Shown here piece after piece: positions 4,364-57,545 of a stretch of 64,000 nucleotides of DNA. The DNA comes from Rhodoferax mekongensis (GTDB taxonomy: Bacteria; Pseudomonadota; Gammaproteobacteria; Burkholderiales; Burkholderiaceae_C). A program made the position numbers and the translations under genes. Position 1 is the stretch's first letter; the number at the start of each line of letters is the position of its first letter. The notes beneath the pieces are model-generated. The model did not search any database and had not been told where the DNA came from. It worked only from the letters and a program-made list of their open reading frames with translations. The DNA lies in assembly GCF_032191775.1 (NCBI RefSeq), contig NZ_CP132507.1, positions 707,001-771,000 on the forward strand, given 5' to 3'.

Positions 4364-4413
4364 AGACTCTGGCGCCCGTGAAACTTGCGCTGGCAGCTAT
4401 CAAAATCATAGTG
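4364..4413 (+). repeat. Dispersed palindromic repeat, copy R1
   Basis: This is a copy of the 50-bp family described for R2: left part CTGGCGCCCGTG, right part GCGCTGGCAGC, tail TATCAAAATCATAG. It lies between the divergent starts and ends of the tautomerase and DTW genes. On the minus strand its TCA (4406-4408) is the stop codon of the DTW protein. Confidence 0.85.
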
Positions 4414-5182
4414 CAAGAGCGGTCTGTGCGTCGTGGCTCTCCAGTAGCGCCCGCAATGCCAGATGGGCTGGTGTATCCAGGTGCGGAGGTAGCTGGTGCT
4501 TGGCCTGCAGGTAATGGTGGGTGTAAACGTCCAGCCAGGCTTCAAGCGCCTGCGCAGCGCGGGTCTCGCCGGCCAGTTCCAGGCAGAGTGCGCCCACTTC
4601 ACTGGTGCAGAAATGGTCTTCACGGCGCGAGCGGCGCAGGCGGTAGCGTGAGATCTGCTCAGGCTGCAGGCTGAGCACCGGAAAGCGGTCCAGGTAAGGG
4701 CTCTTGCGGAACATCTTGCGGGCTTCGGGCCAGGTGGCATCCAGCAGCACAAACAAAGGTCTTTTGCCGGTGGGCAAGTCCTGCGCAGCAGGCAGCGAGT
4801 TCACCACCCGGCCCGGTGCCACAAACTCGCCGGGAAACACCACATACGGCTGCCATTGCGGGTCGGCCAGCAGGACCAGCAGCGCGGGATCTACCTCCGT
4901 ACGGGCCCAGCCGAAGGCCCAGGTGTCGGGCACCACATCGGCAATAAGCCAGCCCGTGTTGCTGGGCTTGAGGGCTTCAATATCCGCCATGATGAGACAC
5001 ACCCCTGCGTTTGCCGGCAGTTGCGGGCGCAGCTTGCAAATGCAGTGGGCGGGGTTGATGCGGCAGCCGGGGCAGCGCTCGCCCTTCATGCCCCCACGGG
5101 CCAGAAAGGGCTTGCTGCTGCGCGCCAGCCGCTCGGCCCGCAGGCGCGACACGGCGTGCGGCAGCGCCGGGCTGTGCGTCAC
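4406..5182 (-). CDS. DTW domain tRNA-uridine aminocarboxypropyltransferase
   Basis: A 258-residue soluble protein with the cysteine set CPGCRINPAHCIC near the N-terminus and the name-giving DATW motif (LLDATWPEARKM). DTW proteins related to E. coli TapT (YfiP) put a 3-amino-3-carboxypropyl group on uridine 47 of tRNA using S-adenosylmethionine. The GTG at 5182 was preferred over an earlier start at 5248 because it gives a 4-bp GTGA overlap with the stop of the upstream gene; the 5248 start would overlap that gene by 70 bp. The stop codon lies inside dispersed repeat R1. Confidence 0.87.
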   Translation of the reverse strand: MTHSPALPHAVSRLRAERLARSSKPFLARGGMKGERCPGCRINPAHCICKLRPQLPANAGVCLIMADIEALKPSNTGWLIADVVPDTWAFGWARTEVDPALLVLLADPQWQPYVVFPGEFVAPGRVVNSLPAAQDLPTGKRPLFVLLDATWPEARKMFRKSPYLDRFPVLSLQPEQISRYRLRRSRREDHFCTSEVGALCLELAGETRAAQALEAWLDVYTHHYLQAKHQLPPHLDTPAHLALRALLESHDAQTALAL

Positions 5183-5730
5183 AGGCCCACTTTCACCGCG
5201 TGTTCTCTCGCGTACTTTGCTGCTTGCGGGCTCACCGTGCCCAAGCACAGGTAGTGCGCATCGTCCGCACCCATGGCCTCCTTGTGGGCGACCAGCGCCT
5301 CCAGTGCCTCGACGCCATGGGTTGCCGCCTTGTAGCGCTTGGCGGCGACCAGCGTTACCCGCCCGGCTTTCTCCAGTCGGAAATCCGCTGCACCCGTGGA
5401 CGGGCCTTGGGCCGCCAGACGCGTCACCGCATAGCCCTGCCGTGCAAACCGGGTCTCCAACTCTTGTGAGAACTCGCGCCAGGACAAGGCTGCCAGTCGC
5501 GCCATTTCAGCTTCAACCGCGGCGGCTGAGGGCTTGTTCCATTGCCTTTTGAGCGCGATCCCTGCGGTCACCAGAAAGGGGAAGGACCCGATGGCGCCAA
5601 ACACCACCACATCCTTGGGCAGCAGTGCCGCGCTGACCGCGCAGATCACAACCACCAGCGCCACGCTATACCACCACGGATTGCGCAACAAAATCGCAAA
5701 CAGTGAGTTGGGAGCCATTTTGAGTTTCAT
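5179..5730 (-). CDS. Membrane-anchored Mrr-like restriction endonuclease domain protein
   Basis: A 183-residue protein with two hydrophobic helices in the first 65 residues (NPWWYSVALVVVICAV and VVVFGAIGSFPFLVTAG), followed by a soluble domain that begins LSWREFSQELETRFARQGYAV and contains GAADFRLEKAGRVTLVAAKRYK. That arrangement matches the Mrr_cat domain (D then xxK), which cleaves DNA in type IV systems. The usual QxK is replaced by AAK here, so nuclease activity is uncertain. The ATG at 5730 gives a sensible membrane N-terminus; a longer frame to 5976 runs over the neighbouring gene. Its stop overlaps the DTW gene by 4 bp. Confidence 0.75.
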   Translation of the reverse strand: MKLKMAPNSLFAILLRNPWWYSVALVVVICAVSAALLPKDVVVFGAIGSFPFLVTAGIALKRQWNKPSAAAVEAEMARLAALSWREFSQELETRFARQGYAVTRLAAQGPSTGAADFRLEKAGRVTLVAAKRYKAATHGVEALEALVAHKEAMGADDAHYLCLGTVSPQAAKYAREHAVKVGL

Positions 5731-5771
5731 TTTCTTAACTCGTGAGGAAGCGATGGATGAAGAGCACGACC

Positions 5772-6023
5772 TTAGCGTCGCGGCAGCGACCAGCCCGCCC
5801 GCTGGTTGAATTTGTTGTTCTCGTAATCCCAGATGGAGCCGCAGCGGTCGCAGCGGTAACGGGTCACCGTGACGGAACGGCCGTCCCGGTCTTCTTTGCG
5901 GTTGTCCCCTTGCACCAGTTCGGCGTGTCCTGGGGCGCGCCGCCAATCGCGCTGAATGCCGCGGCAGGGTTCGCACAATGCGGCTTCACGGGCTTTCGCG
6001 GCGATTTCGTAGTTATCGGACAT
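5772..6023 (-). CDS. Small zinc-ribbon hypothetical protein
   Basis: An 83-residue protein with two CxxC pairs, CEPC near residue 17 and CDRC near residue 58, spaced like a zinc ribbon, and charged residues between them. The end of the frame reads DYENNKFNQRAGWSLPRR. It is transcribed toward the Mrr-like gene, 41 bp away, and may share its transcript. I do not recognise a named family; it could be a nucleic-acid-binding ribbon. Confidence 0.6.
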   Translation of the reverse strand: MSDNYEIAAKAREAALCEPCRGIQRDWRRAPGHAELVQGDNRKEDRDGRSVTVTRYRCDRCGSIWDYENNKFNQRAGWSLPRR

Positions 6024-6135
6024 GTTGGGGTTTCTCTGGCAGCGCCGTCGGTGGGAAAGGGCGTGATTGTCGCAGCCCCGTTGGAGTATCCGGTTTTGCG
6101 GGCCGACAAGCGCAGTGATCGCAGGGTTTTCATTT

Positions 6136-6149
6136 GCTCCGCGCGGAGC
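6136..6149. promoter_or_regulatory. Perfect 14-bp palindrome upstream of the hom leader
   Basis: GCTCCGCGCGGAGC reads the same on both strands. It lies just upstream of a TATGCT hexamer at 6163-6168 and the putative leader peptide. It could be a regulator site or part of a hairpin; no regulator can be named. Confidence 0.3.
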
Positions 6150-6174
6150 AGTTTGATTGTGCTATGCTGCGCCC

Positions 6175-6302: not shown

Positions 6303-6365
6303 GTGTTTCCTCCGCAGAAGAACCCGGCCCCGGCAGCAGGGTCTGCAACTGTTCCGGAGACACCC

Positions 6366-7763: not shown

Positions 7764-7773
7764 GCATTAAACA

Positions 7774-7823
7774 GGCTGCTGGCGCCCGTTGAATATGCGC
7801 AGGCAGCTCCTGAAACCATAGCG
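7774..7823 (+). repeat. Dispersed palindromic repeat, copy R2 (near consensus)
   Basis: The family consensus, read from the copies in this window, is left arm GCTGCTGGCGC, loop CCGTGGAATAT, right arm GCGCAAGCAGC, then tail TATCAAAATCATAGC. The arms form an imperfect hairpin. This copy follows the hom stop by 10 bp and precedes the 3' end of the convergent marR gene. Confidence 0.88.
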
Positions 7824-7845
7824 GATAGCAGGCTCAGCAGGGGCT

Positions 7846-11909: not shown

Positions 11910-11926
11910 ACTTTAGGAGCCAAATA

Positions 11927-11971
11927 GGCTGCTAGCGCACGTGGAATATGCGCCAGCAGCTACAAAAACAG
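11927..11971 (+). repeat. Dispersed palindromic repeat, copy R3
   Basis: GGCTGCTAGCGCACGTGG, then AATATGCGCCAGCAGC and tail TACAAAAACAG. It lies between the convergent PPOX and VOC genes, 18 bp after the PPOX stop, and fills most of the gap. Confidence 0.87.
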
Positions 11972-11977
11972 TCGCGT

Positions 11978-12373
11978 TTACACCTTGGGCGGGCGGTACA
12001 AGGCGCAGAGCTTGTGGCCGTCCGGGTCGCGCAGGTAGGCCAGGTAGAGCTTGCCGACCGAGCCCTCGCGCCAGCCGGGCGGGTCTTCGCAGGTGGTGCC
12101 GCCGTTGGCAATGCCTGCAGCGTGAAACGCATCGGCTTGCTCGGGGGACGCCATGGTGAAGCCAATGGTGCCACCGTTGGCGGCGGTGGCTGGTTGGCCA
12201 TTCAGTGGCTGGGTAATGCCGAAGCTGCCGGTGGGCGTGCGGTAGAAGTAGCGGTCCACCACGCCGTTGTTGTTGTGGATGCCGGGCTTGATGCCCAAGG
12301 TGCCCAAGACGGCGTCGTAAAAGCGCTTGGATGCATCGATGTCGTTCACACCGACCATGACATGACTGAACAT
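11978..12373 (-). CDS. VOC (glyoxalase-like) superfamily protein
   Basis: A 131-residue protein with the paired beta-alpha-beta-beta-beta fold of glyoxalase/bleomycin-resistance proteins: it starts MFSHVMVGVNDIDASKRFYDAVLG and ends LAYLRDPDGHKLCALYRP. The His in SHVMVG and the acidic and His positions near the end could bind a metal. Substrate unknown. The stop lies 6 bp from repeat R3. Confidence 0.87.
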   Translation of the reverse strand: MFSHVMVGVNDIDASKRFYDAVLGTLGIKPGIHNNNGVVDRYFYRTPTGSFGITQPLNGQPATAANGGTIGFTMASPEQADAFHAAGIANGGTTCEDPPGWREGSVGKLYLAYLRDPDGHKLCALYRPPKV

Positions 12374-18330: not shown

Positions 18331-19668
18331 ATGCCCACTGCACCAGACCTCTCCGCCAGCATCCTGCAAGCCCTGCGGCGCCAGGGTGGTGCGCTCAGCA
18401 GCGCCGAGCTGCAAAAAGCGCTGGGGGTGAGCCAGCCCACCGTCTCGCGCGCGCTGGCACCGCTCATCCAGGCGGGCGAGGTGCAAAAGGTGGGCGCCGC
18501 CCGCAAGCAGCGTTATGTGCTGCCGCGCACCGTGCGCGACGTGGGGCGCAGCGTGCCCATCATGCGCATCAACGCGCAAGGCCAACCGAGCCCGTTCGGG
18601 CGCATGGTGCCCCTGGCCAGCGGCGCGGTGTGGGTGGACGAAGAAGACGGCCTCTCCAAGCGCTTTGACGGCCTGCCCTGGTTTCTGGACGACATGCGCC
18701 CCCAGGGCTTCATGGGCCGCACCTTCGCGAGCGCCCACCCCGAGCTGCAACTGGGCAACGACCCCCGCTACTGGAGCGACGACGACGTGCTGCGCGCCCT
18801 GGCCCTGTGTGGTGACGACCTGCCCGGCAACCTGGTGGTGGGCGAGGTCGCGTTTGCGCGCTTTCACAGCCTGCCCCAGCGCGCCCGCCGCGCCGCATCG
18901 CCAGCCGACTATCCCGCCCTTGCCGATGCGGCCATGCAAGGCACCATGGGCGGCTCGTCAGCCGGGGGCGAGCAGCCCAAGTTCTGCGCCATCACAGGCG
19001 ACCGCCATGTGCTGGTCAAGTTCTCCCCCGCGGGCGACGCCCCCACCGACCAACGCACCCGCGACCTGCTGGTCTGCGAACACCTGGCCCTGCACACACT
19101 GGCCAGCGCGGGCATTGCTGCCGCCGCCAGCCGCATCCACACCGGCGCGGGCCGCGTGTTTCTGGAGGTGGAGCGGTTTGATCGCATGCCCATCAGCGCC
19201 GCCAATCCGCAGGGCTTGGGGCGCATCGGCATGGTCTCGCTCATGGTGTATGACGCCGAATACGTGGGCGCCATGGACAACTGGGGCGCCACCGCCAACC
19301 GCATGCAAGAGCGCGGCCTGCTGCGACCGGCCGATGCGCGCACCCTGCGCCTGCTGGAGGCCTTTGGCGAGCTGATTGCCAACACCGACCGGCACTACGG
19401 CAACATCTCGCTCTTGCTGGACGATGACGACTGGGCCCTGGCCCCCGCCTACGACATGCTGCCCATGCTCTACGCCCCCGTGGGCGGCGAGCTGGTGCCG
19501 CGCAACTTTGCCGATCGCCCCCTGCAGCGCACCGCCGCCACTCTCCCGGAGTGGCCGCAGGCCCTGGCCCTGGCCCGCAGCTTCTGGGCAGCCGCCAGTG
19601 CCGACGCGCGCATCTCCCCCGGCTTCAGGCAGGTAGCGGCGGAAAATTTAAGCCATATCAGCCGTTAG
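18331..19668 (+). CDS. yjjJ: HipA-like serine/threonine kinase YjjJ
   Basis: A 445-residue single-chain HipA homologue, the length of E. coli YjjJ. Residues 1-55 are a winged helix (SSAELQKALGVSQPTVSRALAPLI). The HipA kinase fold follows: GGSSAGGEQPKFC is the glycine-rich loop, HVLVKFSP carries the ATP-binding Lys, ELIANTDRHYGNISLL is the catalytic loop (Asp, His, Asn) and LAPAYDMLPM the metal-binding Asp. HipA kinases phosphorylate glutamyl-tRNA synthetase and cause growth arrest; the YjjJ target is less clear. No separate HipB gene is adjacent, so the fused HTH may act as its own repressor. The stop lies inside repeat R5. Confidence 0.87.
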   Translation: MPTAPDLSASILQALRRQGGALSSAELQKALGVSQPTVSRALAPLIQAGEVQKVGAARKQRYVLPRTVRDVGRSVPIMRINAQGQPSPFGRMVPLASGAVWVDEEDGLSKRFDGLPWFLDDMRPQGFMGRTFASAHPELQLGNDPRYWSDDDVLRALALCGDDLPGNLVVGEVAFARFHSLPQRARRAASPADYPALADAAMQGTMGGSSAGGEQPKFCAITGDRHVLVKFSPAGDAPTDQRTRDLLVCEHLALHTLASAGIAAAASRIHTGAGRVFLEVERFDRMPISAANPQGLGRIGMVSLMVYDAEYVGAMDNWGATANRMQERGLLRPADARTLRLLEAFGELIANTDRHYGNISLLLDDDDWALAPAYDMLPMLYAPVGGELVPRNFADRPLQRTAATLPEWPQALALARSFWAAASADARISPGFRQVAAENLSHISR

Positions 19669-19706
19669 CCCCCGTGGAATTTGCGCAAGCAGCTATCAAA
19701 TCATGA
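19661..19706 (+). repeat. Dispersed palindromic repeat, copy R5
   Basis: GCCGTTAGCCCCCGTGGAA, then TTTGCGCAAGCAGC and tail TATCAAATCATGAGC. The TAG in its left part is the yjjJ stop, and the ATG in its tail is the start codon of the YdeI-like gene, so the repeat forms the whole gene junction. Confidence 0.86.
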
Positions 19707-20269
19707 GCAAACCAACGCACCACAGCTTTGAAACCCCCGAGCAGCTGGACGCCTGGCTGCGCGCCCACCACGCCAGCGAGACCGAGCTGTGGGTGCGCAT
19801 CTTCAAAAAAGGTAGCGGCCAAGCCACCGTGACGTGGGACGACTGCGTCATCGCCGCCCTCACCTGGGGCTGGATCGACGGGCAGCGCAAATCCCTGGAC
19901 GACACCTCATTTCTGCAGCGCATGACGCCGCGCCGCGCGCGCTCCGGCTGGTCGCAAAAGAATGTGCAGCACGCCGAGCGGCTGATTGCCGAGGGGCTGA
20001 TGCAAGCCCCCGGCCTGGCGCAGGTAGAGGCCGCCCGCGCCGACGGCCGCTGGGACGCCGCCTACGCCGGCAGCGCCGACATGGTGATCCCCGAAGACTT
20101 TTTGGCAGCGCTGCAACAAGACCCCGCAGCGCTGGCTTTCTACGGCACGCTCAAGCGCCAGCAGCTGTTCACCATCTACTACCGGCTCACCAGCGCCAAG
20201 CGGGTGGAGACGCGCGAGAGGCGGATGGCGGAGTTGTTGGGGAAGTTGGGGCGGGGCGAGAGTCTGTGA
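19703..20269 (+). CDS. YdeI/OmpD-associated family protein
   Basis: A 188-residue protein: ELWVRIFKKGSGQATVTWDD, ALTWGWIDGQRKSLDD and FLQRMTPRRARSGWSQKNVQHAERLIAEGLM are hallmarks of the YdeI family (bacteriocin-protection YdeI/OmpD-associated). The biochemical role is unknown; some members affect resistance to peptides. The ATG lies in the tail of repeat R5 with no good ribosome site. A degraded copy of its first 20 codons occurs at 21566-21631. Confidence 0.85.
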   Translation: MSKPTHHSFETPEQLDAWLRAHHASETELWVRIFKKGSGQATVTWDDCVIAALTWGWIDGQRKSLDDTSFLQRMTPRRARSGWSQKNVQHAERLIAEGLMQAPGLAQVEAARADGRWDAAYAGSADMVIPEDFLAALQQDPAALAFYGTLKRQQLFTIYYRLTSAKRVETRERRMAELLGKLGRGESL

Positions 20270-20392: not shown

Positions 20393-21523
20393 ATGCACCC
20401 CCACAAGTCTCAACTCCGCCGCACTTACATCTGGCAGCGCCCCGACTGGCCGCAGTGGCGGTTTGACGCGGCAGCACTGGCTGCGCCGATGGCACAGGTG
20501 CATCGGGCCCAGGGCAACCTGGCGGGGCGCATGGCCGAGCTGGGGTTGGCGCAGCGCGACCAGGCCACGCTGCAAGCCCTCACCCAAGAAGTCATCACCA
20601 CCAGCGCCATCGAAGGCGAAGCGCTCAACCTGGACGCCGTGCGCTCGTCGATTGCCCGCAGGCTGGGCGTGGACATCGGTGCGCTGGCTCCCGCCGACCG
20701 GCATGTAGATGGCGTGGTCGACATGGTGCTGGACGCCACCCAGCAGCACGCCCTGCCACTCACGGCCGAGCGCCTCTTTGGCTGGCACGCGGCGTTGTTT
20801 CCCACCGGCTACAGCGGCCGCGTGCGCATCCAGGTGGGTGCGTGGCGCAACGATGCCGCAGGCCCTATGCAAGTGGTGTCTGGCCCCGTGGGCCGCGAAA
20901 AGGTGCACTTTGAGGCACCGCCCGCCACCGCACTACCCGCAGAGACCGCTGCCTTTTTGCAATGGTTCAACGCCGCTCCGGCGGGAGACGCGCTCATTCA
21001 CGCGGGCCTAGCCCACCTGTGGCTCGTCACCTTGCACCCCTTTGACGACGGCAACGGCCGCATCAGCCGTGCTGTGGGCGACATGGCGCTGGCGCGCGCC
21101 GAAGGCACGGCACAACGCTTCTACAGCCTCAGTGCCCAAATACAGCGCGAGCGCAAACAGTATTACGACCAGCTGGAGGCCACTCAGCGCGGCACGCTGG
21201 ATGTCACGCCCTGGCTGAGCTGGTTCTTGGCCTGCCTGCTACGTGCCGTGCAGGGCGCCGATGGCTTGCTAGGTGGCGTTTTGATTAAGACCCAGTTCTG
21301 GCAACGCTGGGCGGGCATGCCCATGAACCAGCGGCAAACGCTGGTGTTGAACAAAGTGCTGGACGGCATGGAAGGCAAGCTCACCAACGCCAAGTGGGCA
21401 GCCATTGGCAAATGCTCTGCAGATACGGCGCTGCGCGACATCAACGACCTGCTGACGCGCGGTGTGCTGCGCAGGCTGGAGGGAGGTGGACGCAGTACGG
21501 GTTATGAGTTGAATGCCAAATAG
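20393..21523 (+). CDS. Fic family protein (adenylyltransferase-like)
   Basis: A 376-residue Fic protein. The core motif HPFDDGNGRISR starts at His 215; Fic enzymes use it to transfer AMP from ATP to a hydroxyl on a target protein. The N-terminal inhibitory motif T70-SAI-E74-G75 matches (S/T)xxxE(G/N), placing it in the class whose own helix blocks the active site. A C-terminal winged helix (KWAAIGKCSADTALRDINDLLTRGVL) suggests DNA binding. The ATG at 20393 was preferred over a GTG at 20369, which lies within the operator-like repeats. Target unknown. Confidence 0.9.
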   Translation: MHPHKSQLRRTYIWQRPDWPQWRFDAAALAAPMAQVHRAQGNLAGRMAELGLAQRDQATLQALTQEVITTSAIEGEALNLDAVRSSIARRLGVDIGALAPADRHVDGVVDMVLDATQQHALPLTAERLFGWHAALFPTGYSGRVRIQVGAWRNDAAGPMQVVSGPVGREKVHFEAPPATALPAETAAFLQWFNAAPAGDALIHAGLAHLWLVTLHPFDDGNGRISRAVGDMALARAEGTAQRFYSLSAQIQRERKQYYDQLEATQRGTLDVTPWLSWFLACLLRAVQGADGLLGGVLIKTQFWQRWAGMPMNQRQTLVLNKVLDGMEGKLTNAKWAAIGKCSADTALRDINDLLTRGVLRRLEGGGRSTGYELNAK

Positions 21524-21524
21524 A

Positions 21525-21571
21525 CCAATAGCCCACGTGAAATAGGCGCAAGCAGCTATCAAAACATGAGC
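21525..21571 (+). repeat. Dispersed palindromic repeat, copy R6
   Basis: AATAGCCCACGTGAAATAGG, then CGCAAGCAGC and tail TATCAAAACATGAGC. The copy begins just after the fic stop and leads into a remnant of the YdeI-like gene, as R5 leads into the intact gene. Confidence 0.84.
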
Positions 21572-21631
21572 AAACTGACGCACCACGCGTTTAAAGCCCC
21601 CACGCAGCTAGCGCGTGCCGAGCGCCCGTAA
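21566..21631 (+). pseudogene. Truncated remnant of a YdeI-like gene 5' end
   Basis: An open frame of 21 residues, MSKLTHHAFKAPTQLARAER plus one, matches the start of the YdeI-like protein (MSKPTHHSFETPEQLDA) at about 10 of 16 positions and then diverges to a stop. It follows repeat R6 exactly as the intact gene follows R5. This is a decayed duplicate or the footprint of a duplicated repeat-gene junction. From 21632 to 21691 nothing is recognised. Confidence 0.65.
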
Positions 21632-25171: not shown

Positions 25172-25200
25172 GGGGAGGGGGCTTTACTTGTTTGTTGGAC

Positions 25201-25226
25201 TGGTGGCTCTCGTGGAATGCGCGCGA
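25201..25226 (+). repeat. Partial, diverged copy of the dispersed repeat (R7)
   Basis: TGGTGGCTCTCGTGGAATGC keeps the CGTGGAAT loop and following GCGC of the family, but the right arm and tail are lost. It sits in the 64-bp gap between the DUF2130 and HEPN-like genes. Confidence 0.4.
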
Positions 25227-25235
25227 TTATCTTCA

Positions 25236-26051
25236 TCATCTTTGCCCACTCAGATTGGCGATAGCCGCTTGAAGCACCTGCCAGCTGATCTTTGCAGTGT
25301 GGGCGTCTGGTCGAAAGTTTTGGACTGCTTGTTGACGAGGATGAATGTAATTTCGGAAGTCCCTAAGCGAGTGACTGTGTTTTTTGATATCCAGCGACAG
25401 CAAACCAACTTCGTGCGCCACATTGATCAGGTTATCAAGTGTCCATTCATGAAATTGCTTTGTGTTGCTGTTCTTGTCTTTCGGGGCTGAACTCGCTTGA
25501 TTAAACTGCTGCGAATTTTTGGTGGCCGCATCTAACAATAGGCCTTCTAAAGTGCTGCCGCAAAGGAAGATTACGGCCAAAGCGGCGTCAGATTTCAGGG
25601 ATTTGTGTATTTCGCTGATGCGTTGTTCGATGACTTGCTGAAACGGACCATCAATATTGAGCCGTCCCAAATTTGGCTTTGCGTATTCCATGGTGAGGAA
25701 GTCAGATTCGCTAGACACTGAAGCTGGCTTCGCGTGTGGCATTCCGACAAGGCGTTCAATGATCTCCTCGGCCCTCTTTTTATCGACAGCATCAACCTTC
25801 TCCGTTACCTCTGCGTATTGCAGTAGCGCTCCCAATACCCTCCCGACCACTGCATCAGATTCAACCTCCCAAAAGGCCCTCAGTCGCTTCATTTTTGAGG
25901 CGCCGTTAAATTTGTACTTCGGATCGTCAATGCCGATTTGGTGCTCTCGAAAGAAGGCGGAGAAAGTTGGGTCAGTGAAGTCGAGTACATAACCGCCACG
26001 ATCAAACAGCCTCTCGAAGATAACTTTTTCGTGAGTCTTTAACGTGGACAT
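25236..26051 (-). CDS. HEPN-like protein, possible abortive-infection factor
   Basis: A 271-residue protein. The N-terminal part (YVLDFTDPTFSAFFREHQIG, IDDPKY, GASKMKRLRAFWE) resembles an N-terminal domain I associate with AbiJ-like proteins. The C-terminal part (LAVIFLCGSTLEGLLLDAA) ends in R230-x6-H237 within LRDFRNYIHP, the pattern of HEPN ribonucleases. Codon use and GC (roughly 48 percent by eye against over 60 percent around it) point to recent transfer. Defence or RNase activity is inferred from domain resemblance only. Confidence 0.7.
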   Translation of the reverse strand: MSTLKTHEKVIFERLFDRGGYVLDFTDPTFSAFFREHQIGIDDPKYKFNGASKMKRLRAFWEVESDAVVGRVLGALLQYAEVTEKVDAVDKKRAEEIIERLVGMPHAKPASVSSESDFLTMEYAKPNLGRLNIDGPFQQVIEQRISEIHKSLKSDAALAVIFLCGSTLEGLLLDAATKNSQQFNQASSAPKDKNSNTKQFHEWTLDNLINVAHEVGLLSLDIKKHSHSLRDFRNYIHPRQQAVQNFRPDAHTAKISWQVLQAAIANLSGQR

Positions 26052-26562: not shown

Positions 26563-26760
26563 GAACTGCCTGCCACCCTGAATGCTTTTTTGTTGGTCGC
26601 CATCATGCCCGCTTAAAAGCACAAATTCCAGTATCTGCATTTGCGAATTTCACTATTCTGGTGCGGTTCCTGCCCCGGCAGGCCTAGGGTTTAAGACCGC
26701 ACCCGCCTTAAGTTGAATCCGCTACCATGCAGTAAACGCCACCAAAATACGAGCCAAAAA

Positions 26761-26813
26761 TGCCTCTGGCGCCCATCAAACATGCGCGAGCAGCTATCAA
26801 AATCATAGTAAAT
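26761..26813 (+). repeat. Dispersed palindromic repeat, copy R8
   Basis: CCTCTGGCGCCCATCAAACA, then TGCGCGAGCAGC and tail TATCAAAATCATAG. It ends at the ATG (26814) of the diguanylate cyclase, replacing the usual ribosome site region. The stretch 26563-26760 upstream holds no recognisable gene. Confidence 0.86.
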
Positions 26814-28622
26814 ATGGTTTTGCTCCTGCCGCTGTGGGTGGCCGCGCAGGCGGTGCAGGTGCAGGCGGTGGGTGCGGGCGCCCTGGACGTGAGCCCGGCG
26901 CTGGCTGTGCTGGAGGATGCCGATGGCAGCCTCACCCTGCCGGAGGTGCTGGCCGCAGACCGCGCGGGCCGCATGGTGCCGCGGCCCGGTGCGTCCCAAG
27001 GCTTGTCGCTGGGCTTTACCCGCTCGGCCTTCTGGCTGCGGCTGGAGGTGCGCAACCCCGGCTCCGCCGTGGCGCACCAGCTGCTGGAGGTGAGCAACGC
27101 GCGCATTTCCCATGTGTCTTTCTTTGTGCCTGATGACGCGGGCCGCTACACCGAGACGCGCACCGGGGGCGACCTGCCATTTGCCACCCGCGCGGTGGCG
27201 CACCGGCATCTGGTGTTCCCGCTGCAGGTGGCGCCGCAGGCTACGCAGGTGGTGTACCTGCGGGTGCAGTCCACCATCGGACTGATCGTGCCGGTGCAGC
27301 TGTGGGCGCGGCCGGACCTTGATGAGCACACCCACACCGACTACATGCTCCACGCCTGGTACTACGGCATGGCCACAGCCATGCTGGTGTTCAACCTGAT
27401 GCTGTGGGTGGCACTGCGCGACCGCATTTATGGCTACTACGTGGTGTTTGTGGGCGCCACCGCGCTGATGCTGGCCTCCAAGGCCGGGCTGGCTTCCCAG
27501 TACTTTTGGCCCGGGGCGCTGGTGTGGAGCAACTTTTCGTACTACACGGCTGCGTCGGTAGGCGCGGCGGCGTTTTGCCTGTTTACCCGCCGCATGCTGG
27601 ACACCGCCACCGTGTTGCCCCGTGTGCACCGCGCATTGCAGGTGCTGGCGGCGGTGCACCTGCTGGCACCGCTGGTGTATTGGTTTGCCATAACGCCGGT
27701 AGCGCGCTTCGCCACGCTGCTGTTTTTGTTGACGGTGCTGGCCGTGACTGCGGTGGGCGCGTGGTGTGCCTTTTTGCGCATGCGCAGCGGGTACTACTTT
27801 TTAGGGGCCTTTGGCATGTTGGCGGTGGGTAGCCTGGTGACCACCGCGCGCAGCTTCGGCTGGCTGCCGACCAACGCCTTCACCGTGAACGGCTTTCAGC
27901 TGGGCTCCAACCTCGAGATGCTGTTACTGGCCTTTGCGCTGGCCGACCGCTTCAACCAGATGCGCCGCGAAAAGCACTTGGCGCAGCGCGAGCTGGTGTC
28001 CGCCCAGCAGCAGCTGGTAGATACGCTGCGTGCCTCCGAGCTGGAGCTGGCCCAGCGGGTCGAAGAGCGCACCCGCCAGCTGCAAGTGGCCAACGAGCGG
28101 CTGGAGGCGCTGAGCATGGTGGACGGCTTGACCGGCATTGCCAACCGCCGCCACTTTGACCAGGTGCTGCACAAAGAGTGGACGCGGCTGGAGCGCGCCG
28201 CCCAGCCCTTGGCGCTGGTGATGCTGGATGTGGACTGGTTCAAGCGCTACAACGACCACTTCGGCCACCAGGCCGGCGACGAGTGCCTGCGCGCGGTGGC
28301 CCAGGCCATCAGCGGCGTGAGCCGCGCCAGCGACCTGGTAGCGCGCTACGGTGGCGAGGAGTTTGTGATCATCGCCCCGGGCACCGACGGCCCGCAGGCC
28401 CTGCAAATGGCCCAGCGTGCATGCGATGCGGTGCGCGCTTTGGGCATGCCGCACCCGTTGGCGTATGAATCGGTAGTCACCGTGAGCTGCGGTGTGGCAG
28501 TCACCGTGCCCGGCCCTGACGACAGTCTCGAAAACCTGCTGGGCCAAGCCGACGACGCGCTCTATGAAGCCAAGGCCCAGGGCCGCAACCGCGTGGTGCT
28601 GGCCGAGCCCTTGGGTGGGTAA
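26814..28622 (+). CDS. 7TMR-DISM diguanylate cyclase
   Basis: About 602 residues. A signal peptide (VLLLPLWVAAQAVQ) leads a periplasmic 7TMR-DISMED2 sensor domain, then seven membrane segments (from YMLHAWYYGMATAMLVFNL), a coiled-coil signalling helix (ELAQRVEERTRQLQVANERLEAL) and a GGDEF domain whose active motif is YGGEEF, with DGLTGIANRRHFDQVL at its start. It should make cyclic di-GMP on sensing a periplasmic ligand, probably a carbohydrate. The frame opens earlier at 26760, but that part is repeat R8; ATG 26814 begins the signal peptide. No RxxD inhibitory site was seen before the active site. Confidence 0.9.
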   Translation: MVLLLPLWVAAQAVQVQAVGAGALDVSPALAVLEDADGSLTLPEVLAADRAGRMVPRPGASQGLSLGFTRSAFWLRLEVRNPGSAVAHQLLEVSNARISHVSFFVPDDAGRYTETRTGGDLPFATRAVAHRHLVFPLQVAPQATQVVYLRVQSTIGLIVPVQLWARPDLDEHTHTDYMLHAWYYGMATAMLVFNLMLWVALRDRIYGYYVVFVGATALMLASKAGLASQYFWPGALVWSNFSYYTAASVGAAAFCLFTRRMLDTATVLPRVHRALQVLAAVHLLAPLVYWFAITPVARFATLLFLLTVLAVTAVGAWCAFLRMRSGYYFLGAFGMLAVGSLVTTARSFGWLPTNAFTVNGFQLGSNLEMLLLAFALADRFNQMRREKHLAQRELVSAQQQLVDTLRASELELAQRVEERTRQLQVANERLEALSMVDGLTGIANRRHFDQVLHKEWTRLERAAQPLALVMLDVDWFKRYNDHFGHQAGDECLRAVAQAISGVSRASDLVARYGGEEFVIIAPGTDGPQALQMAQRACDAVRALGMPHPLAYESVVTVSCGVAVTVPGPDDSLENLLGQADDALYEAKAQGRNRVVLAEPLGG

Positions 28623-29408: not shown

Positions 29409-30535
29409 CGGCACTTACTTCTCTGCAAGGCCACATCCTCACCCCCACCGGCTTTGTGCACGGCAGCCTGCACTTGGGCACCGACGGCCGCATTGCCGGC
29501 ATCACCGGCGAGCCGGTCAGCGAGGCCCAAGTGCGCGAGGGCAGTGCGCCCATCGTGCTGCCCGGCTTCATCGACCTGCATGTGCACGGTGGCGCGGGGC
29601 ACGACATCATGGAAGGCGGCGACGCGGCCTGGCATGTGGCGCGCCTGCATGCGCAGCACGGCACCACATCGCTGCTTGCCACCACCATGACCGCGCCGCA
29701 AGCCGACCTGGATGCCGCCTTTGCCGCACTCGCACCCCTATGTACCGCGCCTGCGCCAAATGCAGCCCGTGTGTTGGGTGTACACCTCGAGGGGCCGTAC
29801 ATCAGTGAGGCGCGCCTGGGTGCGCAGCCGCCGTTTGCGCGGCCCGCGAGTTTTGACGAAATCCACCGCCTGCATGCGCTCGCGCCCATTCGCCTGATCA
29901 CGCTGGCGCCCGAGGTGGGTGGCAACGAGGCGCTGATTGCGCAGCTGGTGGCCGAGGGCTTCAAGGTGCAGCTGGGCCACACCACCGGCAGTTACGAGCA
30001 GGGCGTGGCTGCGCTGCGCTGCGGGGCTACGGGCTTTACCCATTTGTTCAACGCCATGTCGGCACTGCACCACCGCGAGCCCGGCATGGTGGGTGCGGCG
30101 CTGGCGCATGCCGAGTTTGCAGAAGTCATCCCTGACCTTCTGCATGTGCACCCCGGCGCCATTCACGCGGCGCTGCGCGCTATTCCCCGTCTGTACTGCG
30201 TGACCGACTCCACCTCAGCTGCCGGCATGCCCGATGGCGACTACAAGCTCGGCCGCCACACCGTGACCAAGTGCATGGGCGGTGTGCGCTTGGCCGATGG
30301 CACGCTGGCCGGCTCGGTGCTCAGCATGGACCAGGCGTTGCGCAACCTCGTCAACACACTGGGCCTGAGCCTGGCCGATGCCAGCAGCCGCGTGTCCACC
30401 TTCGCGGCCGACCACATGGGCCTGCAAGACCGCGGGCGTTTGCAGCCCGGCGCCTGGGCTGATGCGGTAGTGCTCGACCGCGACTTGCAGGTGCAAGCCG
30501 TGTGGGTCGAGGGCAACGAAGTGCTATTGAAATAG
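29405..30535 (+). CDS. nagA: N-acetylglucosamine-6-phosphate deacetylase
   Basis: A 376-residue amidohydrolase that removes acetate from GlcNAc-6-P. The metal and substrate motifs are present: GFIDLHVHGGAGHD near residue 56, GVHLEGPYIS near residue 123, VQLGHTTGSYEQG, THLFNAMSALHHREPG and the catalytic Asp in VTDSTSAAGMPDG. The start overlaps the stop of the GntR gene. Its stop TAG lies inside reversed repeat R9. It links with the transporter, kinase and deaminase genes at 37-43 kb to complete the pathway. Confidence 0.95.
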   Translation: MTALTSLQGHILTPTGFVHGSLHLGTDGRIAGITGEPVSEAQVREGSAPIVLPGFIDLHVHGGAGHDIMEGGDAAWHVARLHAQHGTTSLLATTMTAPQADLDAAFAALAPLCTAPAPNAARVLGVHLEGPYISEARLGAQPPFARPASFDEIHRLHALAPIRLITLAPEVGGNEALIAQLVAEGFKVQLGHTTGSYEQGVAALRCGATGFTHLFNAMSALHHREPGMVGAALAHAEFAEVIPDLLHVHPGAIHAALRAIPRLYCVTDSTSAAGMPDGDYKLGRHTVTKCMGGVRLADGTLAGSVLSMDQALRNLVNTLGLSLADASSRVSTFAADHMGLQDRGRLQPGAWADAVVLDRDLQVQAVWVEGNEVLLK

Positions 30536-30567
30536 GAGCTGCTCGCGCATATTCCACGGGCGCCAGG
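30522..30567 (-). repeat. Dispersed palindromic repeat, copy R9 (reverse orientation)
   Basis: On the plus strand it reads GAGCTGCTCGCGCATATTCC, then ACGGGCGCCAGGC; on the minus strand it follows the family consensus. Its tail region includes the TAG stop of nagA. Confidence 0.84.
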
Positions 30568-30635
30568 CAACTCCGCAAGAAATGTATGTTCCGTGTTTCT
30601 AGACTGTCGGCTATCGCATTTACCGGAGTCTGAAC

Positions 30636-44451: not shown

Positions 44452-45060
44452 ATGACATCTCCTGAATCCACTCCCAAGAGCCCCAAATTGCGCCCTATTC
44501 CCAACTTCATTTTTGCCAGCCGCTGGTTGCAGCTGCCCCTGTACCTGGGCTTGATTGCCGCGCAGGGCGTGTACGTGTTTCACTTCTGGGTGGAGCTGGT
44601 GCACCTGCTGGAAGCCGCCTTCGGCAGCCAGACCGCGCTGCAGGCGCTCGTAAGCAGCATCGGCTACAAGTCGGATGTGCCGGTCCCTGCGCTGAACGAG
44701 ACCATCATCATGTTGGTGGTGCTGGCGCTGATTGACGTGGTGATGATCTCCAACCTGCTGATCATGGTGATCGTGGGTGGCTACGAAACTTTTGTGAGCC
44801 GCATGGACCTGGACGGCCACCCCGACCAACCCGAGTGGCTCAGCCATGTGAATGCCTCGGTGCTCAAAGTGAAGCTGGCCACCGCCATCATCGGTATCAG
44901 CTCCATCCACCTGCTCAAGACCTTTATCAACGCTGCCAATTACGACGAGAAGGTGCTGATTGCCCAGACGGCCATCCACATCACCTTCTTGTTGTCAGCC
45001 ATTGCCATTGCCTACACCGACAAGCTGCTCAATAGCAGCCACCAGAACTCTGGTCATTGA
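44452..45060 (+). CDS. TIGR00645 / YqhA family membrane protein
   Basis: A 202-residue inner-membrane protein with four membrane segments. [52 protein letters not shown] and [19 protein letters not shown] are conserved in the YqhA/TIGR00645 family. Its role is unknown. The gap upstream (44373-44451) has a short weak hairpin followed by six Ts but no clear terminator. Confidence 0.92.
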
Positions 45061-48400: not shown

Positions 48401-48736
48401 GGTGCGCAGTGTGCCTTTAGTTCCTGAAGGCGTCCTTAACTGAGGTGTTTGCCGGCAATGCCGGCCAGCTCAAACATGGTGACCTGGGGCTTGCCGAACA
48501 CCGCGAGCAGCTTGGCATCGGCGTTGATGCTGCGCTTGTCTTTGGCGTCTTGCAGGCCGTTGGCCTTGATGTAGTCCCACAGCTTCTTCATGACCTGCGG
48601 GCGCGCAATCGGCTCGGCACCGATCACCGCGGCCAACTCTGCGCTCGGTTGTTTGCCGCTGGCGGCTGTGGTTTTGCGCGGGGCTTTGGGCTTGGCCTCT
48701 TTGACGGCAGCAGCTTTCTTTGCAGGGGCTTTTTTG

Positions 48737-48788
48737 GCTGCAGCGCCCGCAGAACCTGCGCGGGCAGCTCCTGTTTTTGTAGCGGCTG
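48737..48788 (+). repeat. Dispersed repeat copy R13 inside the topB coding region
   Basis: Compared with R4 it keeps AGCGCCCG, an AA pair, then TGCGCGGGCAGCTCCT and TAGC. On the minus strand it is translated in frame as the Ala/Gly/Thr-rich linker segment [16 protein letters not shown] of the topoisomerase. The 16-base identity to R4 makes chance resemblance unlikely, although Ala-rich coding sequence is GC-rich. Confidence 0.7.
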
Positions 48789-50495
48789 TGGTTTTGATGA
48801 CAGCCTTGAAGGCCGTTTTGCGGGGTGGGAACTTGGAGGGAGCGAACTCGAAGTTCACTTTGCCCTCGGTCGCATCCCAAGCCAGCATGGCCTTGAAGTT
48901 GCGGCGGGTGCGCATGGAGACAAATTTCTCCAGCATGTCGGTCTTGCCAGTGGCCAACAGCTTTTGCATCTGCTCGCGTTCGATAGGCTGCTGCAAGATG
49001 ATCTGGCCGCTCTTGAAGTCGCAGCTCGGGGTGGGCTGGCCATCGGTGGGCACCGATTTTTCGCAGACGTAGTTCTTGCCGTGCTCGAAGACATTGCCGC
49101 CGCACTTGGGGCAGGCGCCCAGCGCGGTTTGTGCGCTGAAGTCGATGATCTCGCCGTCTTCTTCGCCGGCCTTGTCGTCGCCGAAGTCGAACTCCAGTTT
49201 GTAGTTCTTGGCTTCTTCATCAAACTTGATGACCATCTCGGCCACAAAAGGCCAGCCGGCTTTGGAGCGGAAACCGTCCAAGGGGCCAATGTGCTTGTCG
49301 CGCAGGAACTGCTCCACCTCGGCCAGCTCAAACGTGCGACCTGCGGGGGACTTGCCGAAGGAGAAGCCGCAGCCCTCGCTGTGACCGTCTGCACCGGTAC
49401 AGGTGTAGCGGCGGTAGTTCTCTTTCACAATGCCGCCGCAGTTGGGGCAAGGGGCAGCCAGGGTGGCGTAGTCACCGGGGATGGTGTCGCGGTCGTATTC
49501 CTTGGCTTTGCGGACCATGTGCTCGGTCATGGCGGCGATCTCGGCCATGAACTTTTCGCGGCTGAGTTTGCCCTGCTCCATCTGGGAGAGCTTGTATTCC
49601 CATTCACCAGTGAGCTCAGCCTTGGTCAGTTCCTGTACGTCCAAGCCGCGCAAGAGCGTCATGAGCTGGAAGGACTTGGCAGTGGGAATCAGCTCGCGGC
49701 CTTCGCGCAGCATGTACTTTTCTGCGATCAGACCTTCGATGATGCTGGAGCGGGTGGCTGGTGTGCCCAGGCCCTTCTCCTGCATGGCTTCCCGCAGCTC
49801 GTCGTCTTCCACGGTTTTGCCGGCACCTTCCATGGCGCCGAGCAGCGTGGCTTCGGAGTAGCGGGCTGGGGGTTTGGTTTTGAGGCCCTTGGCTTCCACG
49901 GTCTCGCCGCGCACCTTTTCATTCGGGGCCACGGGCACCAAATTCTGGCCCTTGTCGCCGTCCTTGGCATCTTCCACTTCGGCGGCGGCTTCCTTGCCGT
50001 AGATGGCCAGCCAGCCGGGCTTGACCAGTACCTTGCCTTCGGTTTTGAAAGCGTGCTGGGCCGCCGTGGTGATGCGGGTGGTCACCTGGTATTCCGCACT
50101 GGGGAAGAACACCGCCATGAAGCGGCGCACCACCAGGTCGTACAGCTTCTGTTCCGCCTCGCTCAAGCCACTGGGCGCTTGCAGGGTGGGGATGATGGCA
50201 AAGTGATCCGACACCTTGGCGTTGTCGAACACGCGTTTGGTGGGCTTGATGTAGTTGCCATTCAGTGCGACCAGGGCGTGAGGCGCGAGGTGGCGCATGT
50301 CGCTGTCGGCCAGCATCTCGAAGGTCTTTTTCACCACCGGCACATAGTCTTCCGGCAGGGCGCGGGAATCGGTACGCGGGTAGGTCAGGGCCTTGTGGCG
50401 CTCGTAGAGGCTCTGGGCAATTTGCAAGGTGGTCTTGGCGGAGAAGCCGAACTTGCCGTTGGCTTCGCGTTGCAGGCTGGTCAGGTCAAACAGCA

Positions 50496-55681: not shown

Positions 55682-55774
55682 GTGTGTCTCCGTGCGGGGT
55701 GCGGCGCTGCGGCCGCTTGAGTGCCATTCTAGGCGCCTCGTGCGGGCGCCCTTTTGCGGTGACGCAGCATCCGG

Positions 55775-56251
55775 TCAATGGCTGGCATAGGCTTCCAGTC
55801 CCAGCGTGATGACCGTGGCCACCTCGGGTCCGACCGATTGTTCCAGCTCCGCCTGTGCCTGCTGCACGGCGTCCTGGTAAGCCTGCACCCATGCCAATCC
55901 GGCGGCAGTGAAGCAGATGCGTTTGGCCCGGGCGTCGGATGCATCGCTCTCCCGCTGCACCATGCCCCAGGCTTCGCACTGGGTGACCAGCGTGGCCATG
56001 GCTTGTTTGGTCATGCCGGCGCGTGCAGCCAGATCGGTCAGGCGCGTGCCTTGCAGCTCAAGGTGCCGCGTGATGTGGATGTGTGCTGCACCGACCTGCG
56101 CGCGCGCGGCCAGGTTGGCCAGACCCAATGGAACCGTGGGGTGACTGCCCATGAGCTGGAGCACCCGCGCATCGAACCGCTCCAGCGCCAGGCGCAGCCA
56201 GTGGCCGACATGATTGCTTCGCCAGGTGTCTGCATGGGGAGAAGATTGCAT
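55775..56251 (-). CDS. MarR family transcriptional regulator
   Basis: A 158-residue winged-helix protein: LTDLAARAGMTKQAMATLVTQCEAWGMVQRESDASDARAKRICFT is the recognition helix and wing. It lies divergent from recA with 142 bp between, but there is no sign it controls recA. Ligand unknown. Confidence 0.88.
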   Translation of the reverse strand: MQSSPHADTWRSNHVGHWLRLALERFDARVLQLMGSHPTVPLGLANLAARAQVGAAHIHITRHLELQGTRLTDLAARAGMTKQAMATLVTQCEAWGMVQRESDASDARAKRICFTAAGLAWVQAYQDAVQQAQAELEQSVGPEVATVITLGLEAYASH

Positions 56252-56315
56252 GGTCTAAATGGTAATGCAAACTGACTAAAAAATAGCTTGTAGCTGTTTG
56301 ACCGCCCCCATAAAC

Positions 56316-56333
56316 TACTGTTCAAGCATCCAG
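56316..56333 (+). promoter_or_regulatory. SOS (LexA) box candidate upstream of recA
   Basis: TACTGTTCAAGCATCCAG contains CTG-N10-CAG, the LexA-box pattern, and lies 60 bp before the recA start. recA is a near-universal LexA target, so this position is expected. Confidence 0.65.
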
Positions 56334-56393
56334 CCTGTTGTTAAAACCAGATGCAAGAAGTTAGCCCACCAATTGATTTTTCAGGAGATTTCC

Positions 56394-57482
56394 ATGGACG
56401 TACCCGTCAAGAACCCCGCCGCCAACGCAGAGAAGGCCAAGGCCCTGCAGGTCGCTCTGGCCCAGATCGAAAAGCAATTCGGCAAGGGCACCATCATGCG
56501 TTTGGGCGAGGGCGAGGTGATTGAAGACATCCAGGTCGTGTCCACCGGCTCCTTGGGGCTGGACATTGCACTGGGCGTAGGCGGCCTGCCCCGCGGCCGT
56601 GTGGTGGAAATTTACGGCCCGGAGTCCTCCGGCAAAACCACCCTGACCCTGCAAGTGGTCGCCGAGATGCAAAAGCAAGGCGGCCAGTGCGCCTTTGTGG
56701 ATGCCGAGCACGCGCTGGACATCCAGTACGCCCAGAAGCTGGGCGTGAACCTGCAAGACCTGCTCATCAGCCAGCCCGACACCGGCGAACAGGCCCTGGA
56801 AATTGTGGACAGCCTGGTGCGTTCCGGCGCGGTGGACCTGATCATCGTGGACTCGGTAGCTGCGTTGACCCCCAAAGCCGAGCTCGAAGGCGAGATGGGC
56901 GACAGCCTGCCCGGTTTGCAAGCCCGCTTGATGAGCCAGGCGCTGCGCAAGCTCACCGCCCACATCAAGAAGACCAACTGCATGGTTATCTTCATCAACC
57001 AGATCCGCATGAAGATCGGTGTGATGTTCGGCTCGCCTGAAACCACCACCGGCGGTAACGCGCTGAAGTTCTACGCCTCTGTCCGTCTGGATATCCGCCG
57101 CACCGGCACCATCAAAAAGGGCGAGGACTCGATCGGCAACGAGACCAAAGTCAAAGTGGTCAAGAACAAAGTCAGCCCTCCGTTCAAGACGGCGGAGTTC
57201 GACATCCTGTTCGGTGAAGGTATCAGCCGCCACGGCGAGATCATCGACATGGGCGTGAACGCCGGTATCCTGGAAAAATCCGGCGCCTGGTACGCCTACC
57301 AAGGCGAGAAGATCGGCCAGGGCCGTGACAACGCCCGTGAATTCCTGCGTGAGAACCCAGAGTTGTCGGTCGAAATCGAGAACAAAGTGCGCGCCAACCT
57401 TGGCATCCCTTTGTTGCCGGTAGCAGAGCCTGAAGCGAAGGCCAAGGGCAAGAAAGCCGATAAGGCTGATAAAGCAGAATAA
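56394..57482 (+). CDS. recA: Recombinase RecA
   Basis: A 362-residue recombinase that forms filaments on single-stranded DNA and stimulates LexA self-cleavage. Walker [10 protein letters not shown] (residues 75-83), Walker [14 protein letters not shown] cap segment [15 protein letters not shown] and the L2 loop region [33 protein letters not shown] are intact; the C-terminus is Lys/Glu-rich as usual. AGGAG lies 6 bases before ATG 56394. It is followed by repeat R11 and recX. Confidence 0.98.
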
Positions 57483-57492
57483 TGGTCAAAGT

Positions 57493-57545
57493 GGCTGCCA
57501 GCGCTCATGAAATGTGCGCCAGCAGCTACTGAATTCATAGCAAAT
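57493..57545 (+). repeat. Dispersed palindromic repeat, copy R11
   Basis: GGCTGCCAGCGCTCATGAAA, then TGTGCGCCAGCAGC and tail TACTGAATTCATAGC. It fills most of the 83-bp recA-recX gap, 10 bp after the recA stop; it could affect recX expression. Confidence 0.86.

What the first reader, a model, noticed from the sequence alone, without database searches (positions are those of the whole stretch)
4364..57545. A family of at least twelve 50-bp palindromic repeats scattered between genes
Copies at 4364, 7774, 11927, 16479, 19661, 21525, 26761, 30522 (reversed), 45067, 48737, 57493 and a partial one at 25201 share left arm GCTGCTGGCGC, loop CCGTGGAATAT, right arm GCGCAAGCAGC and tail TATCAAAATCATAGC. 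The arms can form an imperfect hairpin and the tail is unusually conserved for a mere terminator. I associate similar sequences with Comamonadaceae intergenic DNA but know no named function. A REP-like element moved by an unlinked transposase, or a conserved 3'-UTR RNA element, are both possible.
Basis: partly seen in the sequence, partly recalled or inferred. Interest (0 to 1): 0.75.

Follow-up and report, generated by a model that had tools for sequence, protein, structure and literature searches.

The report
In-place genome-wide DNA motif, uptake-signal-like
A roughly 65-base DNA motif recurs hundreds of times in this Rhodoferax-like genome, in intergenic gaps and written over ordinary gene sequence; it behaves less like a jumping repeat than like a genome-wide address label, possibly one that lets cells recognise their own DNA for uptake.

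Summary
The repeat is real: a ~65-bp motif with 441 sites by a one-mismatch pattern and roughly 530-640 by profile extrapolation in a 3.89-Mb genome of Rhodoferax affinity. Stems show no covariation, so an RNA hairpin is not supported. A REP moved by a RAYT is unlikely: 29 of 63 sampled copies lie inside ORFs (my own gene calls). At the mutL ATPase site twelve same-genus orthologues have no net length change, while the motif score runs from -12 to 51 and the protein stays nearly constant. There the motif was built by base substitution, at about 1.8 times the flanking divergence. Nine copies inside Pfam domains likewise show no 21-residue insertion. A RAYT-type gene occurs in motif-poor genomes and was not found in five motif-rich ones. 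Of 26 same-genus genomes checked, 11 hold 125-452 sites, 13 hold 18 or fewer. Best fit: a DNA-level signal kept by biased recombination, working like the uptake sequences of Haemophilus and Neisseria, but far longer; I found none reported for Burkholderiales. No uptake was shown; a chromosome-architecture site is the main rival. Only one site gave a fully clean in-place comparison with motif-poor genomes.

The parts
4356..4418 (+). motif copy, 59 bits
   Evidence: orthologous copy in G572
7766..7828 (+). motif copy, 64 bits; unit starts just after ORF 6303-7763
11919..11981 (+). motif copy, 65 bits
16470..16532 (+). motif copy, 63 bits; overlaps the end of ORF 15635-16486
19652..19714 (+). motif copy, 65 bits; spans the end of ORF 18331-19668 and the start (ATGAGC, 19703) of the next
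21515..21577 (+). motif copy, 59 bits, 79% identical to 19652; followed by a 21-codon remnant like the gene at 19703, so probably a local duplication
25190..25252 (+). probable decayed copy (12.5 bits); full copies at the same junction in G572 and G540
26753..26815 (+). motif copy, 73 bits; the ORF start called inside it is probably wrong (inference)
30517..30579 (-). motif copy on the minus strand, 42 bits
45059..45121 (+). motif copy, 74 bits; starts at the end of ORF 44452-45060
48727..48789 (+). motif copy, 48 bits, inside the C-terminal part of topA (ORF 48436-50427, minus strand); ungapped orthologous copies in G572 and G558
57485..57547 (+). motif copy, 70 bits; unit starts just after ORF 56298-57482

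Best explanation
A ~65-bp double-stranded DNA signal dispersed over the chromosome. Shown: it sits in ORFs and between them on both strands, and at the mutL ATPase site it differs between species by base substitutions in conserved coding sequence without net length change, so there it was not inserted as a unit. Suggested only: several AT-rich positions fall about one helical turn apart around a quasi-symmetric GCGC...GCGC core. Inferred: a DNA-binding receptor reads the motif in double-stranded DNA, and sequences that match it better are preferentially taken up and recombined in during natural transformation, a molecular drive like that proposed for the uptake signal sequences of Haemophilus and the DUS of Neisseria. 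Lineages would gain or lose the specificity, giving the on/off pattern within the genus. Copies near gene ends may secondarily act as hairpins.
For: 441 sites by one pattern, strands about equal (207+234; control 1+2). 29 of 63 sampled copies inside ORFs; 27 of these in just two frames, which are open in 49 and 47 of the 63 copies. In-gene and intergenic copies share one motif (49.6 and 56.0 bits). mutL ATPase site: 12 of 12 same-genus regions are 543 nt like own; scores -12 to 51; protein LAAIN[SA]IA[DE]CAI in all 13. Rich and poor genomes differ at 33.1% of site positions against 18.8 and 18.6% in the flanks; 556 of 747 differences favour the motif in the rich genome (0.744; 356 overlapping control offsets: mean 0.485, max 0.689; other strand max 0.680). 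Of 80 named loci, 73 are ungapped over the site, scores -48 to 51; L165 (score 6) and L156 (50) share TMGFRGEALAAINSIADCAILSRASG. Nine copies inside Pfam domains go with domain-length changes of -18 to +14 residues, none of the 21 an insertion would add; mutL and rarA align to solved structures with no insertion there, aroA with 5 extra residues. Few alike copies: mean pairwise identity 0.576, max 0.857. On/off in 26 same-genus genomes; hits above 35 bits: 1 in 95.5 kb of motif-poor and 58 in 374.6 kb of motif-rich genomes. DNA-maintenance genes hold 7 of 29 in-gene sites (mutL twice, mutY, rarA, error-prone polymerase twice, topA; baseline not measured). A ComEC-family gene is present.
Against: No uptake or binding was shown. 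ComEC is found in 70 of 73 genomes regardless of motif number, and the three without a hit (G558, G564, G568) are all motif-rich; two are incomplete (88%, 76%), G564 is 99% complete. At ~55 bits and 65 bp the motif far exceeds known uptake signals. In one search (67 rich-genome sites above 40 bits) only the mutL ATPase site gave ungapped comparisons with motif-poor genomes; there BLAST also placed balanced 1-2-base gaps for G547 and G488 with some queries. Other sites had no poor orthologue aligned or had gaps; at miaA some poor genomes are up to ~20 nt shorter. A G572 copy comes with ~97 nt absent from own and G540. The mutL site was picked because own carries the motif, orthologues share ancestry, and some genomes are the same. 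The profile was trained partly on in-gene copies. The RAYT flank result is above control and not explained by this reading except as one more inherited site.
Confidence: 0.5

Rival explanations
1. A chromosome-architecture site: a nucleoid, topoisomerase or segregation protein binds the ~65-bp site, and selection for this function builds sites in place.
For: Quasi-dyad symmetry and partly phased AT-rich positions; in-place origin at mutL; both strands, in and between genes.
Against: About 55 bits per site far exceed the ~14 bits needed to find ~600 sites in this genome (my arithmetic), which suits a drive better than a plain binding site. The motif is near absent from 13 of 26 same-genus genomes, odd for a core function. 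Replication-strand bias was not tested.
Confidence: 0.27
2. A REP/REPIN-type mobile element moved by the single-copy RAYT-type (Y1_Tnp) gene.
For: A Y1_Tnp gene is present in own and hits REP_Tyr_transpos NF047646 below its cut-off (42.7 of 80 bits). Right after its stop lies a degenerate copy in own (L031:2106) and in L062, L078 and L079; many flanks read GCTAT...TTTGAT before RTGTCCC. At a fixed register 5 of 41 flanks score above 0 bits (3 above 15) against 0.02% of 4674 control registers. A G572 copy comes with ~97 extra nt. 18 of 63 copies have GTAG at columns 53-56, a tag recalled from REP work.
Against: In-place substitution at mutL; few alike copies; the gene is in 23 of 23 further same-genus genomes including motif-poor ones and was not found in G417, G524, G538, G378 and G468, which hold 68-274 sites; 36 of 41 RAYT flanks score below 0 at that register (many are offset by one base).
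Confidence: 0.1
3. Short-tract ectopic gene conversion among copies, without a receptor: partly matching sites are overwritten by other copies.
For: In-place change with raised divergence at mutL; a site matched mainly in its right half in G547.
Against: It does not by itself explain why some genomes of the genus have hundreds of copies and others almost none, and copies stay only ~58% alike, whereas conversion should homogenise them.
Confidence: 0.08
4. A structured RNA or transcription-terminator element at gene 3' ends.
For: Intergenic copies shun divergent gene pairs (2 of 33, while divergent spacers hold 36% of spacer length) and the gene on their 5' side ends toward them in 24 of 33. Arms can pair; 3 of 63 copies have GCTCC...GGAGC where the commonest full pair is GCTAT...ATAGC, 7 of 63.
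Against: Over all copies no stem pairs more often than chance (best single stem pair 1-11, z 2.3, among 1770 column pairs); 0 of 6 predicted pairs with double changes; no Rfam match; no U-tract in the consensus after the stem; 29 of 63 copies in ORFs, 15 antisense.
Confidence: 0.05

Closest known systems
Uptake signal sequence (USS) of Haemophilus/Pasteurellaceae
   Same: Over a thousand copies, in and between genes, a core with AT-rich flanks, frame/orientation preference in genes (PMC2346458, first of three parts read; PMC7811141, passages).
   Different: USS core is 9-11 bp; this motif is ~65 bp and ~55 bits. Another bacterial group. Uptake not shown here.
DNA uptake sequence (DUS) of Neisseriaceae
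   Same: Genome-wide; many recently gained sites too diverged from orthologues for point mutation, read there as recombination (PMC2397512, abstract and passages); a bias of US to genome-maintenance genes is cited in PMC2346458.
   Different: 10-12 bp, unrelated sequence, with known dialects (PMC3630211, abstract and outline only). Another order.
REP/REPIN elements with RAYT (TnpAREP)
   Same: Short, partly palindromic, hundreds of copies; a RAYT-type gene exists and its 3' flank resembles the motif.
   Different: At mutL not inserted as a unit, nearly half of sampled copies in ORFs, few alike copies, number unrelated to the RAYT-type gene.
Rickettsia palindromic elements (recalled, no call)
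   Same: Palindromic repeats inside protein genes, read in open frames.
   Different: Recalled as insertions; here nine Pfam domains show no 21-residue gain.

Membership tests
DNA uptake sequences (USS/DUS) | Over-represented motif, hundreds of copies, both strands | tested here: met
   207+234 against 1+2 in the control
DNA uptake sequences (USS/DUS) | Copies inside genes at homologous sites, without insertion of a unit | tested here: met
   mutL ATPase site, 12 of 12 regions of equal length; nine Pfam-internal sites. Only this one site was clean against motif-poor genomes
DNA uptake sequences (USS/DUS) | Bias to genome-maintenance genes | tested here: inconclusive
   7 of 29 in-gene sites; baseline not measured
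DNA uptake sequences (USS/DUS) | Competence machinery present | tested here: inconclusive
   ComEC family in own, but in 70 of 73 genomes regardless of motif; no hit in three motif-rich ones
DNA uptake sequences (USS/DUS) | Short core of about 9-12 bp | tested here: not met
   motif about -5 to +61, ~55 bits; so not filed as a member
DNA uptake sequences (USS/DUS) | Promotes uptake of DNA that carries it | not testable with these tools
   needs an assay
REP/REPIN with RAYT | Spread by insertion of the element | tested here: not met
   at mutL; one G572 copy with ~97 extra nt is ambiguous; most intergenic sites could not be tested
REP/REPIN with RAYT | Cognate RAYT present where the repeats are many | tested here: not met
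   not found in five genomes with 68-274 sites; present in motif-poor genomes
REP/REPIN with RAYT | RAYT gene flanked by the repeat | tested here: inconclusive
   one-sided degenerate matches, above control in 5 of 41 flanks
REP/REPIN with RAYT | Extragenic location | tested here: not met
   29 of 63 sampled copies in called ORFs
Structured RNA / terminator | Compensatory base changes in stems | tested here: not met
   a few double-changed pairs exist but not above chance
Structured RNA / terminator | Match to a described RNA family | tested here: not met
   0 Rfam matches in the window at the gathering threshold

The most novel reading that the evidence does not exclude
A third, independent family of self-recognition DNA signals, in Comamonadaceae: a ~65-bp uptake signal, far longer than those known, perhaps helically phased, read in double-stranded DNA by an unknown receptor and accumulating in place even over conserved coding sequence.
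Probability: 0.45. Interest if true: 0.92.

Novelty: new variant of a known kind. Interest (0 to 1): 0.78.

Why it matters
If it is an uptake signal, it predicts sequence-specific natural transformation in a large group of environmental bacteria; my text searches (listings only, open-licence papers only) showed no report of that. It also offers a natural experiment: within one genus, genomes with about 450 sites and genomes with almost none. If it is instead an architecture site, it points to an unknown protein reading about six turns of DNA. Either way, a repeat that looks like a REP in the intergenic view seems not to be one.

Tried and rejected
RNA structure: RNAalifold gave 6 weak pairs, none with double changes; a test of 1770 column pairs found no stem with excess pairing. 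RAYT: it looked strong when the gene's 3' flank showed the motif (the script stopped with an error before the last two loci), but presence does not follow motif number. In one search I dropped three loci (L117 repeats L079; L080 and L118 are one genome without the landmark); 5 of the other 46 lacked the landmark. Insertion sites in same-genus genomes: too diverged for most intergenic sites. ComEC as a marker: nearly universal, so uninformative. A covariance-model search of the own genome scored only 150 of 2735 candidates, so totals come from patterns and from a profile over a 464-kb sample. Plasmid search with the consensus: 21 records, 12 listed; the five Comamonadaceae plasmids have one to three places each, but BLAST is weak for so variable a motif. 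Codon usage is poorer inside than outside at 27 of 27 sites in ORFs of about 150 codons or more, but any match to an AT-rich motif would show this, so I give it little weight.
Full report
Observation. The copies are there. A 63-column profile iterated on the window plus 20 evenly spaced 20-kb stretches (464 kb, about 12% of the genome; 5 kb of it masked) gave 77 hits above a shuffle-based threshold, about 2 of them expected by chance, and 63 above 35 bits. That scales to about 530 (63) or 645 (77) in 3.89 Mb. Patterns over the whole genome gave 83+91 sites (two mismatches; control 0+0) and 207+234 (one mismatch, looser; control 1+2). Later sample statistics use the 63 copies above 35 bits.

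Shape. Information runs from about -5 to +61 and is near zero outside. The consensus is GTCAAATAGGCCTCTAGCGCCCGTGGAATATGCGCGAGCAGCTATTAAATTAATAGCAAAT. The GCGC boxes mirror each other about column 26. AT-rich positions near -4, 5, 15, 28, 37, 48 and 59 are about a helical turn apart, but AT-rich positions at 24, 31, 40, 43 and 54-55 are not in that series, and the periodicity scores peak near 7.5-8 and 21-22 bp as well as 11, so phasing is a suggestion only. No stem pairs more than chance over the 63 copies; a few copies carry double-changed 3' stems (3 GCTCC...GGAGC, 1 GCTAC...GTAGC, 7 GCTAT...ATAGC of 63).

Where the copies are. With a simple codon-usage gene caller of my own, 29 of 63 copies lie inside ORFs (15 antisense, 14 sense), 33 between genes and 1 at a stretch end. 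Of the 29, 14 read in one antisense frame and 13 in one sense frame; those frames are open in 47 and 49 of the 63 copies. Some calls at gene starts may be wrong starts (window 26753, L050:14214). Family searches name many of the ORFs: MutL, AroA-Cmk, RarA (MgsA_C), GDPD, ECH_2, FemAB-like, an AMIN/Amidase_3 protein, NAD synthase, error-prone DNA polymerase, a MutY fragment (below cut-off), NAD kinase, MurD-like, MurG-type, MiaA-type, TopA. The ORF L039:7271-8683, with two copies, hit no Pfam or NCBIfam family; I recall it as ImuB-like. Between genes, copies avoid divergent pairs (2 of 33; divergent spacers are 22.4 of 62.5 kb of spacers of 40 nt or more).

In place, not inserted, at mutL. The copy at L049:9551 lies in the ATPase domain. 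In 12 of 12 same-genus genomes the orthologous region has the same length as own, 543 nt. Motif scores are 51, 50, 43, 38, 38, 36, 31, 30, 19, -5, -12 and -12 against 49 in own. Of the 13, the nine with 125 or more sites score 30-51 and the four with 18 or fewer score -12 to 19 (Spearman 0.68, p 0.01, genomes not independent). The protein hardly changes. Mean site divergence between rich and poor is 0.331 against 0.188 and 0.186 in the flanks; 556 of 747 pairwise differences favour the motif in the rich genome, a larger share than at any of 356 overlapping control offsets. L158 is closer to own in MutL (92%) than L159 (84%), yet scores 0 against 38, so at least one extra gain or loss occurred. 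L157 and L159 are titled Rhodoferax and G558 and G404 are of the window's genus, so I place the genome in Rhodoferax in the GTDB sense; its own record was not shown.

Other sites. Nine copies lie inside Pfam domain matches (net length of match against profile): GDPD +5 residues, ECH_2 -1, FemAB_like +14, MutL HATPase_c_3 0, EPSP_synthase +10, NUDIX_4 -1, NAD_kinase_C 0, Glyco_tran_28_C 0 (site edge 2 residues beyond the match), MFS_2 -18. An inserted 63-bp unit would add 21. FemAB_like and EPSP synthase could hide partial insertions; against solved EPSP synthases the surplus at the site is 5 residues. The remaining in-gene copies lie at domain edges, in linkers or in unmatched parts and say nothing on this. 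A second mutL copy, in the linker, is seen in Rhodoferax, Polaromonas and other Comamonadaceae loci. Results against: of 67 rich-genome sites above 40 bits only the mutL ATPase site gave ungapped alignments to motif-poor genomes; miaA and topA-tail alignments have gaps, and at miaA some poor genomes are up to ~20 nt shorter. At one gene junction G572 has ~97 nt, with a 72-bit copy, that own and G540 lack; recombination or insertion could explain it.

Distribution. In one search (250 genomes of the family) I count 49 with 50 or more sites and clearly above control, up to 666 (G500); most others are at control level. None of the 290 genomes outside the family reaches 50 (highest seen 32, G109, control 13). 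Counts jump within genera: g5 115/319/12, g201 308/23/342, g241 252/5. In the own genus, of 26 genomes chosen from 43 seen (mainly the more complete), 11 have 125-452 sites, 2 have 57 and 90, and 13 have 1-18.

Mobile-element test. The 63 copies are 57.6% alike on average, maximum 85.7%; 2 of 1953 pairs reach 80%. A column-independent simulation gives maxima of 0.73-0.84 and a smaller spread (0.054 against 0.070), so there is some relatedness; the pair at 19652/21515 sits beside a duplicated gene fragment. There is no burst of near-identical copies. The RAYT-type gene is found in 61 of 70 chosen family genomes and 23 of 23 further same-genus genomes, motif-poor ones included; it was not found in G417, G524, G378, G468 and G538 (68-274 sites). 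In favour of a link: its 3' flank resembles the motif above control (5 of 41 flanks above 0 bits against 0.02% of control registers), also in some motif-poor genomes (for example L115). I read this as one more inherited site, but cannot exclude that the motif came from there.

What it works like. In Neisseria, many recently gained DUS are too diverged from orthologues to be point mutations and were read as recombination (PMC2397512, abstract and passages seen). USS and DUS sit in genes with an orientation bias, and a genome-maintenance bias is cited (PMC2346458, first of three parts read). USS has a core with AT-rich flanks, and accumulation may be molecular drive (PMC7811141, passages seen). 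The present motif shares these traits but is several times longer. ComEC is present but does not discriminate. Text searches for uptake sequences or competence in this group listed nothing relevant (listings only, the last capped at 10 of 157), and motif strings gave no relevant paper. REP sources were seen only as abstract and outline (PMC8266576, PMC12306157) or listing and term search (PMC3733652). That similar sequences are common in Comamonadaceae was also my recollection before the searches.

Verdict. In-place DNA-level motif rather than inserted unit: about 0.85-0.9. Uptake signal as its cause: about 0.5. Architecture site: about 0.27. Mobile REP: about 0.10.

Noticed in passing
L049:10521-10625 (inside mutL); also L051:4081-4152, L040:8032-8103, L039:18894-18965, L041:2018-2065: A second dispersed repeat of ~50-100 bp, core like GTAGGTCAAGGAGGAGCCCGC...GCGGGCGGGGGACACGGAGC. 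In four of these five copies the outer arms differ in sequence yet look complementary by eye. Many matches in same-genus genomes. Unlike the main motif, it looks like a true stem.
   Followed up: partly
L031:1378-2109: Single-copy RAYT-type (Y1_Tnp) gene upstream of an ORF I recall as gltB. In relatives its 3' flank often reads GCTAT...TTTGAT then RTGTCCC, and several have GGGGTCAGATTCC-like boxes inverted on the two sides.
   Followed up: partly
L049:18187-18858: The miaA-like ORF is one base shorter near its motif copy than G572, G540, G558 and others (543 against 544 nt) and ends early (IPPT match stops at the copy): a real frameshift or an assembly error.
   Followed up: no
window 19703-20269 and 21566-21631: The ORF after motif copy 19652 starts MSKPTHHSFETPEQL; after copy 21515 a similar start MSKLTHHAFKAPTQL runs only 21 codons to a stop: a duplicated gene fragment carrying its motif copy.
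   Followed up: partly
L033:11631-12179, L041:6946-7575, L050:13928-14170: Motif copies at gene starts encode hydrophobic, signal-peptide-like N-termini (my reading, no predictor run).
   Followed up: no
genome G564: 99% complete, 125 motif sites, yet no ComEC hit: a possible loss of competence or a gap in the assembly.
   Followed up: no
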